Made by a program: the position numbers and the translations under genes
Assembly: GCA_021802825.1 (NCBI GenBank)
Contig: JAJZRG010000012.1
Location: 1-64,000 of the forward strand
Direction of reading: 5' to 3'
Length of the DNA stretch: 64,000 nucleotides
Origin: Chloroflexota bacterium
GTDB taxonomy: Bacteria; Chloroflexota; Limnocylindria; Limnocylindrales; CSP1-4
Shown here: positions 2 to 11,563 of the stretch, one piece after another
Numbering within the stretch: the first letter of the stretch is position 1
Layout of the letters: each line of letters starts with the position of its first letter
The notes under the pieces: model-generated
Seen by the model: the letters and a program-made list of their open reading frames with translations, nothing else
Told to the model about the DNA's origin: nothing
Database searches by the model: none

Positions 2-496
2 GTCGAGGCCGACCTCGTCGACTGCATGGTCGCGCTTCCCGGCCAGCTCTTCTACTCCACCCAGATCCCGGTCTGCCTCTGGTTGCTCGCCCGCGACAAG
101 CGCAACGGCCGCTTCCGCGACCGGCGGGGCGAGACCCTGTTCATCGACGCACGGAAGCTGGGCTCGCTGGTGGACCGGACCCACCGCGAGCTGAACGACG
201 CGGAGATCGCCCGCATCGCCGGCGTCTACCACGCGTGGCGCGGCGACCCAGACGCTGCCGAGTACGCCGACGAGCCGGGCTTCTGCCGCTACGCGACGCT
301 TGAGGACATCCGCGGCCACGGCTATGCCCTGACGCCGGGCCGCTACGTGGGGGCGGCGGATGCGAGGGAAGACGACGAGCCGTTCGAGGAGAAGATCGTT
401 CGCCTGTCCGGGACCTTACGCGACCACGTGACCGAGGGCCGCCGGCTCGACGGGCTGATCGAGACGAGCCTGCGGGATCTCGGCTTTGGTGGGTGA
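2..496 (+). CDS. hsdM: Type I restriction-modification methyltransferase subunit, 3' end (partial)
   Basis: This is the C-terminal part of an N6-adenine methyltransferase (HsdM) that methylates host DNA in complex with HsdS. The frame is open from base 2, so the start and the catalytic NPPF-type motif lie outside the window. The visible residues [18 protein letters not shown] and the later FIDARKLG segment are typical of the region after the catalytic domain in HsdM. The stop TGA at 494-496 overlaps the start of hsdS by 11 bp, as is usual in an hsdMS operon. About 164 residues are visible. The identification rests on family pattern and on the hsdS and hsdR genes downstream. Confidence 0.9.
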
Positions 497-1607
497 GTGG
501 CCGCAGGTCGCACTTGGCGATCTCGTCGTGAACCTCGATGGCCGTCGGATCCCCGTCAAGGAGGCCGACCGCCGCCCGGGGCCCTATCCCTACTACGGAG
601 CGTCCGGCGTGGTGGACCACGTGGATGACTTCCTGTTCGACGGCACTCATCTCCTAGTCGCCGAGGATGGCGAGAACCTCCGAAGTCGCAAGACTCCAGT
701 GGCGTTCCTTGCCACGGGGCGGTTCTGGGTCAACAACCACGCACACGTCCTCCAAGCGAACGAGCGTGCCGATACCCGCTACCTGGCCTACGCGCTCAGC
801 CGAGCAGAGATCGGGGGCTACCTAAGCGGATCCACGATGCCGAAGCTCACGCAGGCGAACCTCCATCGCATCCCGGTCCCAGCGCCGCCCCTCTCTGAAC
901 AGCGCCGCATCGCCGGAATCCTCGGCGCGCTCGACGACAAGATTCAGATGAACGTCCGGGCAAGCGAGACGCTAGAGGAAATTGCCCAAACCCTGTTCAT
1001 GTCCTGGTCTCCTGACTCAGAGTCGGATCCATATGACCAGGGCTCCCTCGGGGATGCGGTCGACCTACTTCGAGAGCCGGTGGATCCCCGGCGCGAGCCG
1101 GATACGGTCTTCCAGCACTACAGCCTGCCGGCCTTCGACGCCGGCCGCGAACCGATCTCCGAGCCCGGTGCGCAGATCAGGAGTTCGAAACTCGCCGTTC
1201 CCCAAGGATCGGTCCTTCTCTCCAAGCTGAACCCCGAGATCGCGCGCGTCTGGCTCCCCGACCTTCGGCCCTGGGACCGGGCAATCTGCTCAACCGAGTT
1301 CCTCGTGCTGAAGCCTCGTGCCGGAGTCGGGCGTGCGTTCGTCTACGAGTTCCTCAGAAGCGCCCCTTTTCGCAGCATGTTGACGTCGCTGGTCACAGGT
1401 ACTACCGGGAGTCATCAGCGGGCGCGCGCGGAGGCGATCCTGCAGGTGCCGATGCCGCTGCCTGGCCCAGCCCGGGCGGCGGAATTCGAACATGTCGTCC
1501 GGCCGATGCTTGATCGCGTTGCCGTTGCTCGACGGCAGTCGCGAGCGCTTGCTGAACTCAGGGACGCCCTGCTGCCCCGTCTCCTCTCTGGCGCGCGGCC
1601 CGCATGA
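486..1607 (+). CDS. hsdS: Type I restriction enzyme specificity subunit HsdS
   Basis: HsdS recognises the bipartite DNA target for both methylation and cleavage. At 373 residues it is of normal length and has the expected tandem organisation. A first target-recognition domain covers about residues 1-150 ([20 protein letters not shown] is characteristic). The first conserved helix follows ([19 protein letters not shown]). The second recognition domain covers about 185-330, and a second helix ends in [12 protein letters not shown]. The TTG start at 486 overlaps hsdM by 11 bp. A GTG one codon later is equally possible. The second recognition domain gives no obvious clue to the target sequence. 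Confidence 0.92.
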
Positions 1608-1636: not shown

Positions 1637-2386
1637 ATGGCACGACTCGAGCCGGAACAAGAAGCCCTGCTGGTCACGATGGTGGAGATCCATCGCCAGG
1701 TGCCGCGCGAGGCACGTGGACCGTTCTTCCTCCTTCAAACGATGGGCGGTTCCCGGATCATCCATCCAGGTCTGCGCAACGGGTGGCAGGCCGAGGCGAG
1801 CAAATCGGACCTAGACATACTGGCGCGGTACGGCCTGCTCGCCTATGAGTGGGGCAAGACCCCCAAGTACTCGGTGACGCCCGAAGGCATCGGCTACTAC
1901 GAGGCCCTAAAGGCAGAGCGAGCCGGTCGCGTCGAACAAGTCGAGAGCGAGGTGACCCGCTATCTCGACAGTGAGGGATTCCAGCGGCGCCATCCACGCG
2001 CCTTTGAGTTGTGGTCGCAGGCCGACAGGAGCCTGTGGGGTAGTGACTCCCAGAAGCAGCTCACCACCATCGGCCATGTCATCCGCGAGGCGATGCAGGC
2101 ATTCGCTACGGAACTGGTGGCGCAACTAGGTGTCGAGGCAGACGCCAACCCAGCGCACGACATCGCGCGCATCCGCGCAGTACTTGCGGACCGGAGAGCG
2201 AAGCTCGCCGACACGCACGCGGCGATGCTCGACGCCCTGCTCGCGTACTGGGGCACGGTAAGCGACCTCGCTCAGCGCCAAGAACACGGCGCACAGCGAG
2301 AGGGCGAGGCACTCAGCTGGGAAGACGCGCGGCGACTCGTATTCCAGAGCGCCGTCGTGATGTACGAAGTTGACCGCAGCGTCTAG
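1637..2386 (+). CDS. Restriction-locus accessory protein with winged-helix-like N-terminus
   Basis: This is a 249-residue protein of unknown function lying 29 bp after hsdS in the same direction. Residues about 50-90 (DILARYGLL, then PKYSVTPEGIGYYEAL) read like a winged-helix DNA-binding domain. The rest is charged and helical with no transmembrane segment. It ends inside the start of the TOPRIM gene, a 17-bp overlap that implies coupled translation. Position suggests a role linked to the restriction system or to the TOPRIM protein, for example as a regulator or partner, but this is inferred from context only. ATG at 1637 is the natural start. Confidence 0.75.
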   Translation: MARLEPEQEALLVTMVEIHRQVPREARGPFFLLQTMGGSRIIHPGLRNGWQAEASKSDLDILARYGLLAYEWGKTPKYSVTPEGIGYYEALKAERAGRVEQVESEVTRYLDSEGFQRRHPRAFELWSQADRSLWGSDSQKQLTTIGHVIREAMQAFATELVAQLGVEADANPAHDIARIRAVLADRRAKLADTHAAMLDALLAYWGTVSDLAQRQEHGAQREGEALSWEDARRLVFQSAVVMYEVDRSV

Positions 2387-4139
2387 AACGCGCATCGAGC
2401 CGAACGGCAGGCGGGGCGGCAAGCCCGGACCGCTCGAGGTCGTCGACGTGCCGCTGGTCTTCACGCAACGCCATATTCTCGATCGGCGCAAGTTCCGCGA
2501 CGAGGGACGCCTCCGCGGCGTTTGGCTCGATGACCTGGCCCTGGACGTGCTCGACCGGCACCGCATCGTGACGCCGTTGTTCCGCGCGCGACGGCCGCTC
2601 ACGGGCGTCCGCGCAGCCATCCGCGCCAGCGAACTGCACACGTGGCCGCGCTATCCGGAGTGGGTCTTCGCGGGCGACGCCGATGGACTCCGCTCCGACC
2701 GAGATCGTGGCTTCCTTCGAAGCGGTCCTGATTCTCCGCCCATCTCGAGCCGCGCGTTCTTCCAGGAGCTTGAGGGCGTCTCCGTTCAGGTTCACGAGGC
2801 TCTCTACTCTCCGTACCAGTTGCTCGATCTCAGGGATGCGGTGGAACTCCTGCCAACACTCGGCGCCCTGAAGAGGAGCGCGGCCGGAAGGGCCCGCGTC
2901 GAGGCCGCGCAGCGGGCGGCGGCTCGAGCTGTGGACAGGGCTGTGCTGCTGACCGCGCTGGAGCCCCGTTACTACCATCGCGTCGTTCGGAACCTCACGA
3001 TGCAGGCCCATATCGGTTTCGAGGCCTGGGACGCTGCGGACCGTAAGTTCGACGCCAAGGCGCTGTTGAAGTGGTCTGGCTGGACGCCCTCGGAGATCTT
3101 GGAGGAGGCGCGTCGCCTCCTGTTCCGCGCTTGGTCGATCGACCCACTGAGGGACTGGGTCGACCTCGTTAGGTTCGTCGGCTCCTCGCGATGGAAGAAG
3201 CTCCGCGGCGATGCCCTCCTGGCAATCGAGCTCCGGATCGCTGCAGAGATGCTGCTGCGCTTCCATGAGGCTCTGCATCGGGCGAAGGCGGCCCCGCCCT
3301 TGCCGACGCGGCAGTCGCGCTTGCACGATGACCTCGACGACCGGTTGAAGTTCGATCCCGACGAACTCGACTCGACGCTCGCCACCTACGGCCTCTCCCC
3401 CCACCCGGCCGTCCTGATCATCGCGGAGGGCCAGACCGAGATGGCCGTCCTGCCGCGCGTCATGGCCGAGCTCGGCATCAAACGGGCTGACAGCTACATC
3501 AAGATCCTCAACGCGCACTCGGAGAACGAGAAGCACTCGCTGCTGGCTACCTACGCCGCGCTCCCGAAGCTGGGCCCGATCGAAGGGGACACTGCTGAGT
3601 TCCTTCGACCGCCCACTCGCTACCTCATCGCGGTGGATGGCGATCACACCTACCGGACGCAGCAGGCACGAGATGCCGAGCGAGACCGGCTCGTCGACAT
3701 GCTTGCCGCAGAACTGGCTCCGGAGTACGACACGCCGGCGGCGCGCGACGACCTCCGGTCGCTGATCCTGGTCGAGGCGTGGGCAGACGGGCTGGACTTC
3801 GAGCGAGCGCACTTCAGCGACCGCGAGCTTGCTGACGCCATCATGGCGCTCGGCACCCCGCCCGCGGGGACATCCGCCGGGGCCGTCGAGGCGCTGCTGG
3901 CTGCCCAACGGCAGAGCGCACTCACCGGTCATGCCCGCGGACTCGACGCGATCTGGCGAGGATGGCCTCACAAGCCTAGCAAGGTGGAGCTCGCCGTCCA
4001 CCTGTGGCCAACTCTTCGCAAGCGCATCCGGCGCCAGCGCTCGCGAGCGGGATTGGACCGAATACCCGTCGCCCGGGTCCTGCTCCTGGCGCGCGACCTC
4101 GCCGAACGGCCGCGAGGGATCCTGGTGATGCGGATCTAG
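2370..4139 (+). CDS. TOPRIM-domain protein embedded in type I restriction locus
   Basis: This 589-residue protein carries a C-terminal TOPRIM-type nuclease fold. A hydrophobic strand precedes EGQTE (E353, E357), and about 70 residues later comes AVDGDH with D423 and D425. This acidic triad layout is that of OLD-family and related TOPRIM nucleases, where the residues bind divalent metal. The first 330 residues are helical and unrecognised; no Walker A motif is seen, so it is not a full OLD ATPase-nuclease. The TTG start overlaps the previous gene by 17 bp. A GTG at residue 27 is an alternative start. Its place between hsdS and hsdR suggests an accessory defence nuclease. That function is inferred. 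Confidence 0.72.
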   Translation: MTAASRTRIEPNGRRGGKPGPLEVVDVPLVFTQRHILDRRKFRDEGRLRGVWLDDLALDVLDRHRIVTPLFRARRPLTGVRAAIRASELHTWPRYPEWVFAGDADGLRSDRDRGFLRSGPDSPPISSRAFFQELEGVSVQVHEALYSPYQLLDLRDAVELLPTLGALKRSAAGRARVEAAQRAAARAVDRAVLLTALEPRYYHRVVRNLTMQAHIGFEAWDAADRKFDAKALLKWSGWTPSEILEEARRLLFRAWSIDPLRDWVDLVRFVGSSRWKKLRGDALLAIELRIAAEMLLRFHEALHRAKAAPPLPTRQSRLHDDLDDRLKFDPDELDSTLATYGLSPHPAVLIIAEGQTEMAVLPRVMAELGIKRADSYIKILNAHSENEKHSLLATYAALPKLGPIEGDTAEFLRPPTRYLIAVDGDHTYRTQQARDAERDRLVDMLAAELAPEYDTPAARDDLRSLILVEAWADGLDFERAHFSDRELADAIMALGTPPAGTSAGAVEALLAAQRQSALTGHARGLDAIWRGWPHKPSKVELAVHLWPTLRKRIRRQRSRAGLDRIPVARVLLLARDLAERPRGILVMRI

Positions 4140-4197
4140 AGCGACCTCCGCCGTTTCACGGATCGGCCGCTGTTGGGGACATCACCGGGGCCATGGC

Positions 4198-4240
4198 GTT
4201 CTTCACAGCCATTGTGAAGAACGGCGATTCTGTAAAGAAC
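4198..4240. promoter_or_regulatory. Operator-like inverted repeat plus extra half-site upstream of Schlafen-like gene
   Basis: GTTCTTCACA at 4198-4207 and TGTGAAGAAC at 4213-4222 form a perfect 10-bp inverted repeat with a 5-bp spacer. A further direct half-site, TGTAAAGAAC, follows at 4231-4240, 18 bp from the preceding one. The arrangement looks like a dimeric regulator site with an added half-site. The downstream gene begins at 4396. Confidence 0.5.
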
Positions 4241-4329
4241 GGTCCCGGGCAGGCGCCGGGGGCTCAGATCCCGGTGTCGGCCTCCGCGTATGCGGCTCTG
4301 GGGTGGTGCCGGGACGGCAGGTTTGTCCC

Positions 4330-4395: not shown

Positions 4396-6153
4396 GTGGC
4401 CGTCGACGTCGCGAGGATCCTGACCGAGATCGACAGCGGGCGAACCCCGGCGGAGCTCGAGAGCCAGACCCTGGAGTTCAAGCAGGACAAGCGCCTGCCC
4501 GAGGACACCGAGCGGCTCATCGTCGAAGCCGCCGTGTGCTTCGCGAACGGCGCGGGCGGGACGATCGTGCTCGGCGTCGCCGATCGAGGGACAGGCCCGC
4601 AGGCGTTCCTGGGAACGTCGCTCGCGATCGACCAGCTCCGCCAGTCCGTCTACGCCTCGACGCAGCCGGGGCTGCTGGTCGAGGTCCAGGAGCTCATCCA
4701 TCAAGGGGCGCGGCTGCTCCTCATCCGCGTGCCCGAAGGGGTCGACGTCTACGCCGACTCGAAGGGGCGCCCATACCAGCGCATCGGCAACCAGTGCCAG
4801 CCGATGCCGGTCGCCGAGGCGACGAGGTTGCGCGAGGAGCGCCTCGGGCACGACTGGTCCGCCGAGGCATCGGATCGGGTGCCGGGCGACGTCTCGGCGG
4901 CGACCCTCGAAACGGTCAGGACCGTCCTGTCCGCCCTGCCCGACGACCGACGCCGCCTCGTGTCGCTGTCCGACCTCGACCTGCTCCGGGCGCTCGACCT
5001 TCTGGCGGGTGAGCGCCTGAACCGCGCCGGCACGCTCCTGCTGCTGCCGGCCGAGGCGGATCGGCCCCGGCTCGTGTACCAGTTCCGCCCGACGCCTGGC
5101 GGCGAGCCCACGTTCTCGGAACGCCTCGAGGGACCGCTCGTCTCGGCGTTCGCCCGGGTGATGGAGGTCGTGCGCACCCGGCTCAACAGCGCCCCCCTCA
5201 ACCTGCCCGACGGGCAGCAGATCCAGCTCCAGGACTTCCCGGAGCTGGCGGTCCGCGAGGCCATCGCCAACGGCCTCGTGCACCGCGACTACCGACTTCC
5301 CGGGCCCGTCGCCATCGAGCACTCGCCGGCCGTCTTCGCGGTCACGTCACCTGGGCCGCTCGTGGCGGGCGTCACGCCCGAGAACATCCTCACCCACCCG
5401 CCCAAGCCCCGGAACCGCACGCTGGCGAACGCAGCGCGCAAGCTCGGGTTCGCAGAGGAGTTCGGGCGCGGCATCGACCGGATCTACATCTCGCTGATCC
5501 GGGCCGGGAGGGGCCTCCCGGTCATCGAGAACGATCCGGGGCAGGTCGCAGTCCGCATGGTCGGGGGCGCGCCCAATGTGCACATCGCCCGGTTTGTAGC
5601 GTCGCTGCCCTCGGTCGAGCGCGACGACACCGACGCCCTGCTGGTCCTGTACCGCCTGTGCTCGACTCGGGTGGTCTCGCCGCCGACGATCGCGCCGCTC
5701 CTTCAGCGGTCGGAGGCCGAGGCCGCGACGATCCTCGGCCGGCTCGCGGTGGATCCGCCCGGGATGATCGAGCGGACGCGCCCGGTGCGGGCGGGTGCTG
5801 GGCCTGCCTACAGACTGTCGGGCCCCGCCATGGCCGCCCTCGGGCCGGCCGTGACGTACCAGGTGCGGAGCATCTCGGACACCGACAGAAAGGTCGTCGC
5901 CCACGTCGTGGAGTACGGGAAGATCACTAACCGGACGGTCCAGAACCTGTTCGACGTGACCGTGCACCCGGCGAACGCCATCATCGACGACCTCGTGCGC
6001 CGGGAGATTCTTGTCAAGACGTCCGTCCAACAGCGCGGACCCGGCGTGGAGTACGGACCGGGATCGAAGTTCCCGCATCGCGCCCGTGCCGCACGGAAGC
6101 GGCGGGGGTCGAAGGTGGACGACGCGACCCTGTGGGACGAGCAAGAGCCGTGA
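4396..6153 (+). CDS. Schlafen-like AlbA_2 / HATPase ATP-binding protein
   Basis: This 585-residue protein has an N-terminal AlbA_2 (Schlafen-like) nucleic-acid-binding domain: LEFKQ near residue 27 and [12 protein letters not shown] around 55-66. A GHKL-type C-terminal ATPase module follows, with [12 protein letters not shown] near 289-300 and FGRGIDRIY near 355-364. A helix-turn-helix-like tail covers about 480-560 ([21 protein letters not shown]). Genes of this class often sit inside type I restriction loci, but their role is not settled. The GTG start at 4396 has a GAGGGGA ribosome site just upstream. Its stop codon overlaps the GTG start of hsdR by 4 bp, so the two are co-translated. Confidence 0.85.
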
Positions 6154-9613: not shown

Positions 9614-11563
9614 TTGGCCGTCGGCGTCGTGGCCGAGATCAAGGGCCGCCTCCCCGTCGCGGACGTGGTTGGGGAGACCGTCCAGCTGAAGAAGGCTGGT
9701 ACCACCCTCAAGGGGCTGTGCCCGTTCCACGGCGAGAAGACCCCGTCCTTCGTGGTGACGCCCGCCCGCGACACCTGGCACTGCTTCGGCTGCGGCAAGC
9801 ACGGCGACATCTTCACGTTCCTCATGGAGCGCGACGGCCTGGCCTTCCCCGAGGCGCTCGCCCAGCTGGCCGCCCGGGCCGGCGTCGAGCTCGATGAGCG
9901 CACCAAGCGTGAGGATGCCCGCAATGCGCGCCTGCGCGAGGTCATGGAGGCGGCGATCGCCTTCTACCACGCGGTGCTGATGAGCTCGAAGCAGGGCGAG
10001 CCGGCCCGAGACTACCTGCGCGGGCGCGGCTTCACCGATGCGATCATCGAGAGGCAGCAGCTGGGCTGGGCGCCCGGCGGCTGGGACACACTGGCCCGAA
10101 ACCTGGCCCGCAAGCGCCAGGTCACGCCGCAGGAACTCCTGGACGCTGGCTTGGCGAGCCCCCGCCAGCGCGGCGGCGGCGTGTACGATCGCTTCCGCGA
10201 GCGCGTCATCTTCCCGATCCGCGACGCGAACGGCCACGCCGTGGGCCTCGGCGGAAGGATCCTGGGCAAGGAGGGGACGGACGAGGACGGCCGCGACCAC
10301 GGGCCCAAATACCTCAACTCGCCCGCGACCACCCTGTTCGACAAGAGCCGCACGCTGTACCTCATCGACCGCGCCAAGTCGGCCATCCGCAAGACCGGCC
10401 AGGCCGTCATCGTCGAGGGCTACACCGACGCGCTGATGGCCCACCAGGGCGGCTTCGAGAACGTCGTCGCCAGCCTGGGCACCGCGCTCACGCCCGGCCA
10501 GGTCGCCCTGATCACCCGCTACGCCAAGCGGATCGCGCTCGCGTACGACGTGGACGCGGCGGGCGAGAAGGCCGGCACCTTCGGCGCCACGGCACTCGAG
10601 GAGCTGATCCGCCAGTTGGCTCGCGACGACAGCGGCGTCGAGCTCGACGACGTGCGCGTCGTCCGGCTGCCCGAGGGCAAGGACCCCGACGAGGTGGTCC
10701 GCGACGAGCCCGACCGCTGGCGCGAGGAGGTCCGGACGGCCCGCCCCATCGTTGACCACCTGATCGACGTCCACGCGCGCGCCCACGACCTGCGCACGCC
10801 CGGCGGCCAGGCCCGCTTCGTGGACGCGGTGCTGCCGATCATCCGCAACCTCCCCAACCCGGTCATGCGCGACGCCTACCTCGCCCGCGTCCGCCAGATC
10901 AGCGGGGTGGAGGAGCGGACGCTGCTCGAGGCGATGCACCGCCGCCCGGACCGAGACGGCGGCCGACAGGACGGCCACGGCGGCCGGGACCGCTTCAGCG
11001 CCCAGGCGGTCACCGGCGCCGCCGACGCGCTGCCGGTCAACGACATCCTGCGCGGCGTCTCGCCCACCGAGCAGCGCCTGCTGCGCCTGGTCCTGCTCGT
11101 CCCCGAGGCGCACGACCAGCTGCTCGACGGCCTCGGCCCGGACCGCCTCCCGTCCCAAGTCGCCCGCGAGCTGTTCCGCGCCGTCGTTGAGTCGCGCGCC
11201 CCCGACGACCACGGTGTCCGTCCGGCGTGGTCCCTCTCGAAGGTGCTCGAGGGCACCGACCCCGAGAGCCGCGCCCTGGGCCAGGCGCTCGTCTCCCGCG
11301 AGGGCCCCAACCCGCGCGACCTCTCCGACCGCTCCCTGTCCTACGAGGTGGAGCGCCTGATCCTCGAGCTCGAGGACGCCGAGTGGCACGAGCGCTCGGC
11401 GTTCAACCACGACGCCACCGCCGAGGCCGAGCGCGACGGCGACCGTGCGGTCGTCGATCGCCTCCTGCAAGAGCGGCGCGAGCTCAACGAGCAGCGCCGG
11501 TCGCTCGACCGGCGCCGCAACGACACCCGCCTCCTCGGCCGAGCGGAGGTACCCGCCCGCTGA
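9614..11563 (+). CDS. dnaG: DNA primase
   Basis: DnaG makes RNA primers at the replication fork. The N-terminal zinc-binding domain is complete: CPFH with C36, then CFGCG with C57 and C60. The RNA-polymerase/TOPRIM core shows VIVEGYTD with E268 and AYDVDAAG with D312 and D314. The length (649 residues) is usual. Three starts are in frame: GTG 9539, TTG 9602 and TTG 9614. TTG 9614 is chosen because GGAG lies 6 bp upstream and the protein then begins close to the normal family start. GTG 9539 would translate through the palindrome. It is followed 97 bp later by rpoD in the same direction, an old macromolecular-synthesis pairing. Confidence 0.95.

What the first reader, a model, noticed from the sequence alone, without database searches (positions are those of the whole stretch)
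1637..4139. Winged-helix-like protein and TOPRIM protein inserted between hsdS and hsdR
The 589-residue protein has E353 and D423/D425 in a TOPRIM layout but no ATPase, unlike OLD nucleases. It is translationally coupled to a 249-residue unknown and lies inside a type I restriction operon. It may be an unrecognised accessory nuclease or a regulator of the complex.
Basis: partly seen in the sequence, partly recalled or inferred. Interest (0 to 1): 0.65.

Follow-up and report, generated by a model that had tools for sequence, protein, structure and literature searches.

The report
HEPN–TOPRIM defence cassette in restriction operon
Two genes sitting inside a bacterial DNA-restriction operon look like a swappable anti-virus cassette (a HEPN-fold protein plus a nucleic-acid-cutting TOPRIM enzyme of the OLD type that lacks the usual ATPase), because close relatives carry other anti-virus genes, or nothing, in the same slot.

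Summary
The two genes are real. Protein B (589 aa) has a C-terminal TOPRIM nuclease domain of the OLD type: fold search, sequence profile and profile-profile comparison agree, and E353, G354, E357, D423 and E478 are invariant in 13 diverse homologs. It has no ATPase. Protein A (249 aa) is not simply "winged-helix-like": its C-terminal half models as a HEPN domain, though the canonical Rx4-6H motif is absent.

In orthologous type I loci of the same bacterial family and class (hsdR 65–94% identical) the hsdS-to-hsdR slot is variable. It is empty, or holds only the AlbA gene, in several genomes. In a same-genus genome an AbiJ-like gene stands in for A–B and ends at the same junction. Elsewhere it holds SIR2–HerA, E1/JAB, Mrr-type or AbiE-like modules. 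A–B is best read as exchangeable anti-phage cargo, not a subunit or regulator of the restriction complex.

B homologs also occur alone, beside other HEPN or SIR2 genes, and once more in a type I operon; A and B were seen together only here. Defence genes embedded between hsdS and hsdR are a known theme (PrrC, DarTG2). New are the ATPase-less OLD-type family and its HEPN-fold neighbour. Substrate, trigger and A–B interaction are inferred, not shown.

The parts
2..496 (+). hsdM, C-terminal part only (the contig begins inside the gene)
   Evidence: 73-84% identical to HsdM ends in orthologous family loci; window = contig C61 from base 1
486..1607 (+). hsdS, type I specificity subunit
   Evidence: Pfam Methylase_S 1.8e-22; PADLOC Specificity_I
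1637..2386 (+). Protein A (249 aa): N-terminal ~90 residues possibly wHTH-like, C-terminal ~150 residues HEPN-like fold
   Evidence: AlphaFold model with 4 sequences; Foldseek HEPN hits 2hsb, 4nqf, 1ufb, 8xeh; H147 and H217 conserved in 4 of 4, Rx4-6H absent
2370..4139 (+). Protein B (589 aa; start TTG 2370 or GTG 2448): N-terminal and helical regions of unknown function, C-terminal OLD-type TOPRIM nuclease domain
3402..3983 (+). TOPRIM plus following helical part of B (residues about 345-538) with E353, E357, D423, D425, E478, K538
   Evidence: correspondence to Bp OLD E400, E404, D455, D457, E508, K562 (PMC6755086); hhalign to five OLD proteins 97.3%
4190..4245 (+). Remnant of the 5' end of an AbiEi-like cargo gene, with a perfect inverted repeat at 4198-4222
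   Evidence: aligns with the start of the intact gene in L123, L124 and L135 and with the same remnant in L121
4396..6153 (+). SLFN_AlbA_2 + HATPase_c_4 protein, another passenger of the hsdS-hsdR slot (present in some orthologous loci, absent in others)
   Evidence: Pfam; 90-92% identical in L121 and L122, 65% in L129, absent in L127, L128, L130, L133
6132..9302 (+). hsdR, type I restriction subunit (start GTG 6132 or slightly downstream)
   Evidence: Pfam HSDR_N, SWI2_SNF2, T1RH-like_C; TIGR00348

Best explanation
A-B is an exchangeable anti-phage cassette that occupies the hsdS-hsdR slot of a type I restriction operon as cargo and does not form part of the restriction enzyme. B is most likely a two-metal TOPRIM nuclease of the OLD type that is kept inactive until infection and then cuts DNA or tRNA to stop the phage or the infected cell. 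A, a HEPN-fold protein, is most likely its partner (sensor, inhibitor or co-effector). Shown by computation: relationship of B to OLD TOPRIMs, conserved catalytic residues, HEPN-like fold of A, variable slot with swapped defence modules. Inferred: defence role, nuclease activity, functional coupling of A and B, trigger and substrate.
For: B: OLD TOPRIM by fold (top five PDB hits, prob 0.97-1.00), by profile against PDB sequences (6njv E=0.0025, 6nk8 E=0.01) and by hhalign to real OLD proteins (97.3%, E=1.6e-11); five catalytic-region residues invariant in 13 of 13. A: HEPN hits at ranks 1, 2, 3, 5 and 6. Slot: L122 and L130 lack A-B; L121 (same genus) has an AbiJ-like gene there, and homology to the window resumes at the stop codons of both cargos; L133 SIR2-HerA, L129 E1-E2/JAB, L127 PDC-S11, L128 PDC-S02/Mrr, L123/L124/L132 AbiE-like. 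Precedents for defence genes between hsdS and hsdR or inside a type I operon: DarTG2 (PMC12255303), TgvAB, which protects without HsdR (PMC11411939), PrrC (PMC3710099).
Against: No experiment. A and B are adjacent only in this window; A homologs elsewhere have no B beside them. A lacks the canonical HEPN catalytic motif. Fold E-values are modest (0.068 for B, 0.027 for A) and the models rest on few sequences. The slot is also open to non-defence genes in principle.
Confidence: 0.6

Rival explanations
1. PrrC-like guard: A-B is cargo, but it is physically silenced by the type I complex and released when a phage anti-restriction protein disables that complex, so it acts as second-line suicide.
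For: Same position and logic as PrrC, which sits with hsdMSR of EcoprrI and is silenced by it (PMC3710099, PMC2610378); A is HEPN-like and the slot in a sister genome holds AbiJ, also a HEPN Abi protein; a B homolog also lies in a second type I operon (L016).
Against: Most B homologs have no type I genes nearby, so the complex is not generally needed to control B; TgvAB in the same kind of slot works without HsdR.
Confidence: 0.15
2. B alone is the defence gene; A is an unrelated neighbour that arrived separately.
For: B homologs occur as solitary genes, for example as an AT-rich single-gene insert in L088/L089; A homologs occur without B; A and B differ slightly in GC3.
Against: The two genes overlap or nearly touch and were exchanged as one block relative to L121 and L122; HEPN genes also precede B homologs in L011 and (weak match) L020.
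Confidence: 0.12
3. One reading: B (with A) is an accessory nuclease or regulator of this type I complex, for example trimming DNA ends made by HsdR.
For: Located inside the operon; OLD-type TOPRIMs can degrade DNA (PMC6755086); a distant B homolog directly follows hsdR in L016.
Against: Orthologous hsd systems with up to 94% identical HsdR lack A-B; the slot holds unrelated modules instead; lower GC3 than hsdR.
Confidence: 0.08

Closest known systems
OLD family nucleases (P2 Old, Bp OLD, GajA of Gabija)
   Same: TOPRIM fold with the OLD-type catalytic set, including the metal-B glutamates and the helical-domain lysine
   Different: No ABC ATPase domain; different, mostly helical N-terminal region; no counterpart of T506
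AriB of PARIS, JetD of Wadjet and the retron-Eco2 TOPRIM
   Same: TOPRIM effector not fused to its own ABC ATPase (PMC10568477; PMC12409363; PMC12405507 listed)
   Different: Those work with a separate ABC/SMC ATPase or a reverse transcriptase; here the neighbour is a HEPN-fold protein and no ABC ATPase gene is adjacent
PrrC / EcoprrI and the Campylobacter rlo genes
   Same: Extra gene carried within a type I hsd locus; HEPN-type protein involved
   Different: PrrC fuses an ABC ATPase to HEPN; A has no ATPase and no canonical HEPN motif; silencing by the restriction complex not shown here
TgvAB and DarTG2 embedded in type I operons
   Same: Two-gene defence module within a type I operon
   Different: Unrelated proteins (GmrSD-like; ART toxin-antitoxin)
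AbiJ / ApeA HEPN abortive-infection proteins
   Same: HEPN fold; an AbiJ-like gene takes the place of A-B in a sister genome; an ApeA gene directly precedes a B homolog
   Different: A has no detectable sequence similarity to that AbiJ-like protein and lacks Rx4-6H

Membership tests
OLD family nuclease (B) | TOPRIM domain with E, DxD and OLD-type metal-B residues | tested here: met
   E353, E357, D423, E478 invariant in 13/13; position 425 D/E in 11/13; K538 in 10/13; fold and profile matches
OLD family nuclease (B) | N-terminal ABC ATPase domain on the same protein | tested here: not met
   No Pfam ATPase match, no Walker A motif
OLD family nuclease (B) | Metal-dependent nuclease activity | not testable with these tools
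   Needs purified protein
PARIS (AriA/AriB) | AriA-type ABC ATPase gene next to the TOPRIM gene | tested here: not met
   Neighbours are A (no ATPase family), hsdS and an SLFN_AlbA_2/HATPase_c_4 gene; no PARIS model matched A or B
Lamassu (LmuC-like A) | Confident LmuC match with LmuA and LmuB (SMC) genes nearby | tested here: not met
   Only a 15-bit LmuC hit over about 55 residues of A (E=0.0035), nothing for B or the AlbA gene
HEPN superfamily (A) | HEPN helical-bundle fold | tested here: met
   Predicted only: Foldseek 2hsb prob 1.00, 4nqf 0.97, 1ufb 0.95, from a model with pLDDT 71
HEPN superfamily (A) | Catalytic Rx4-6H motif | tested here: not met
   H217 conserved but the position five before it is A or V; alternative H147 conserved. 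Some HEPN families lack the canonical motif (PMC3710099)
Defence module embedded in a type I operon | Lies between hsd genes and is absent or replaced by other defence genes in orthologous loci | tested here: met
Defence module embedded in a type I operon | Protects against phage | not testable with these tools
   Needs plating experiments
PrrC-type guard of a type I complex | Activity silenced by the HsdMSR complex and released by anti-restriction proteins | not testable with these tools
   Needs genetics; only the position is comparable

The most novel reading that the evidence does not exclude
A and B form a new two-component immune system in which a HEPN-fold protein with a non-canonical active site controls an ATPase-free OLD-type TOPRIM nuclease, so that the OLD active site is gated by a HEPN partner instead of an ABC ATPase; unrelated HEPN partners (ApeA-type) do the same beside other B homologs.
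Probability: 0.2. Interest if true: 0.68.

Novelty: new variant of a known kind. Interest (0 to 1): 0.48.

Why it matters
In the described OLD classes the TOPRIM nuclease comes with an ABC ATPase, on the same protein or, in PARIS, on a partner gene. A family that keeps the OLD active site without any ATPase of its own, found in defence contexts in at least two phyla, makes it testable what else can control such a nuclease. The series of orthologous type I loci with empty, swapped and repeat-flanked cargo also shows the hsdS-hsdR slot to be a productive place to look for new defence genes in Chloroflexota and to study how such cargo is exchanged.

Tried and rejected
Plasmid and phage collections: no match to A or B. 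Viral contigs: no relatives of A or of B; the BFVD fold search for B gave no credible match. The PADLOC LmuC hit to A (E=0.0035) was not taken as membership: short stretch, no LmuA/LmuB here. Sequence similarity of A to the AbiJ-like cargo of L121 was tested and not found. The genome-contig scan gave only 7 loci, several of them genomes already found. A survey centred on E. coli could not be run, so occurrence outside Chloroflexota and Actinomycetota is untested. Hits confined to about 40 TOPRIM positions include genuine ATPase-TOPRIM OLD proteins (those read), and similar hits were therefore not counted as B homologs. A HEPN identity for the divergent neighbour gene in L012/L024 (an RHRVAH motif) was not confirmed by Pfam and is not used.

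Full report
What is there. The window starts inside hsdM at the edge of a contig and reads hsdM - hsdS - A - B - SLFN_AlbA_2 gene - hsdR on the + strand, followed by ORFs that read as DnaG primase and a sigma-70 factor (the last two named from sequence, not searched). A is 1637-2386 (249 aa). B runs from TTG 2370, or possibly GTG 2448, to 4139. GC3 is 0.76 for A and 0.82 for B, against 0.91-0.97 for hsdM, the AlbA gene and hsdR; hsdS is also low at 0.76. This fits horizontal acquisition but does not prove it.

Protein B. Pfam gives one sub-threshold hit, OLD-like_TOPRIM (18.8 bits, cut-off 23.2). Homologs found by whole-genome searches share E353, G354, E357, D423 and E478 in 13 of 13 and K538 in 10 of 13 aligned sequences; two of the homologs scanned pass the Pfam cut-off (L013, L015). 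The AlphaFold model (mean pLDDT 69) has an alternating strand-helix core at 348-470, and the best five PDB fold matches are OLD C-terminal regions, 6nk8 and 6njv/6njw/6njx (prob 0.97-1.00, E 0.07-0.15). A profile search of PDB sequences returns the same two OLD proteins first (E 0.0025 and 0.01). An hhalign comparison with five OLD-type ATPase-TOPRIM proteins gives 97.3% probability and E=1.6e-11. In Bp OLD the active site is E400, D455, D457 (metal A), E404, T506, E508 (metal B) and K562 (PMC6755086). B has counterparts of all but T506 by alignment. There is no Walker A motif. B therefore probably works like an OLD TOPRIM, but it is not an OLD protein by domain architecture.

Protein A. No family matches A convincingly. 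With four aligned homologs the model shows a low-confidence N-terminal region and a C-terminal helical bundle. The fold search returns HEPN domains at ranks 1, 2, 3, 5 and 6 (2hsb prob 1.00, 4nqf 0.97, 1ufb 0.95, 8xeh 0.85; 1ufb is identified as HEPN from my own knowledge). The canonical Rx4-6H is missing: H217 is conserved, but the position five residues before it is A or V; a second conserved histidine, H147, lies upstream. A review of the superfamily describes families without the canonical motif that keep a histidine upstream, among them the 2hsb type (PMC3710099). Whether A is catalytic is open. The N-terminal region of A also matches the start of a CAP12-TIR protein in another genome (L041).

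The location is a variable slot. A search with HsdR found orthologs up to 94% identical in genomes of the same family. Comparing those loci shows: L122, no cargo except the AlbA gene, with 91% DNA identity to the window from 4320 onward; L130, hsdS followed by hsdR; L136 (another family of the class), also hsdS followed by hsdR; L121 (same genus), a 288-aa AbiJ-like gene where A-B is, with homology to the window resuming at the stop codons of B and of the AbiJ-like gene; L133, SIR2 and HerA; L129, E1-E2/ThiF and JAB; L127, PDC-S11; L128, Mrr-type PDC-S02; L123 and L124, a large NTPase with AbiE-like genes; L132, AbiEii-like genes; L131, an AlbA-type gene. The stretch 4190-4245 of the window resembles the start of the AbiEi-like cargo gene that is intact in L123, L124 and L135, as if that cargo had once been here. 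A-B is thus one of several cargos that have occupied this slot.

Relatives elsewhere. With the 13-sequence profile, 12 of 400 Chloroflexota genomes have a long match (about 240 profile positions or more); with the earlier 9-sequence profile, 3 of 247 genomes drawn from the phylum of a Solirubrobacteraceae genome do. Contexts: directly after hsdR in an hsdMSR operon (L016); directly after an ApeA HEPN gene (L011) and after a gene with a weak Apea-HEPN match (L020); beside a SIR2 gene (L052); near large helicase/methylase-like genes named from sequence only (L085); and alone, including an AT-rich single-gene insert (L088/L089). A homologs are rare, 4 of 301 genomes including this one and 3 of 247, some partial, and the ones inspected are not next to B; genomes with B homologs that were tested had no A.

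Interpretation. Defence genes inside type I operons are established: PrrC, the TgvAB pair that protects without HsdR (PMC11411939), and DarTG2 between hsdS and hsdR, where the site was proposed as a recombination hotspot (PMC12255303). By that logic A-B is most likely an anti-phage module with a TOPRIM nuclease effector. TOPRIM effectors can cut tRNA (AriB) or DNA (Bp OLD), so the substrate cannot be decided here. The pairing with a HEPN-fold protein is the most interesting and least secure element.

Limits. The models rest on 9 and 4 sequences. Gene calls in compared loci come from a simple script. The survey covers samples of two phyla. Nothing has been tested experimentally.

Noticed in passing
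L135 (own genome, contig C52) 112-240 and 4192-4320: A 129-bp direct repeat (96.9% identical) of the 5' end of hsdR flanks a different cargo block (a PDC-S27-like ATPase and others), which suggests cargo arrives or is exchanged by recombination at the hsdR 5' end; it may be a second locus or a strain variant in the assembly.
   Followed up: partly
L132 2244-2410, 5923-6569, 8957-9259: Three truncated copies of the hsdR 5' part (83-87% identical in DNA to the intact gene at 11365) lie between cargo genes, as if cargo had accumulated in steps.
   Followed up: partly
window 4198-4222: Perfect inverted repeat GTTCTTCACAgccatTGTGAAGAAC at the remnant of an AbiEi-like gene start; a near-perfect form (TTCTTTACA...TGTGAAGAA) is kept in L121. 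Possibly an old operator.
   Followed up: partly
window 4396-6153: SLFN_AlbA_2 + HATPase_c_4 gene overlapping hsdR; it comes and goes between orthologous loci, so it is probably cargo too.
   Followed up: partly
L014 (G238) and L090 (G252): Two genomes carry, between the same flanking genes, B-family proteins that match each other's family profile only at the N-terminus in L090, as if the C-terminal effector part had been exchanged at this site.
   Followed up: no
L041 8509-9897: A CAP12/Pycsar-type TIR protein begins with a region similar to the N-terminus of A, hinting at a portable domain shared by different effectors.
   Followed up: partly
L020 5246-6520 and L053 10487-11752: An uncharacterised protein family (FDKSALQ...LDEAVW type start) lies near B homologs in two different genomes.
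   Followed up: no
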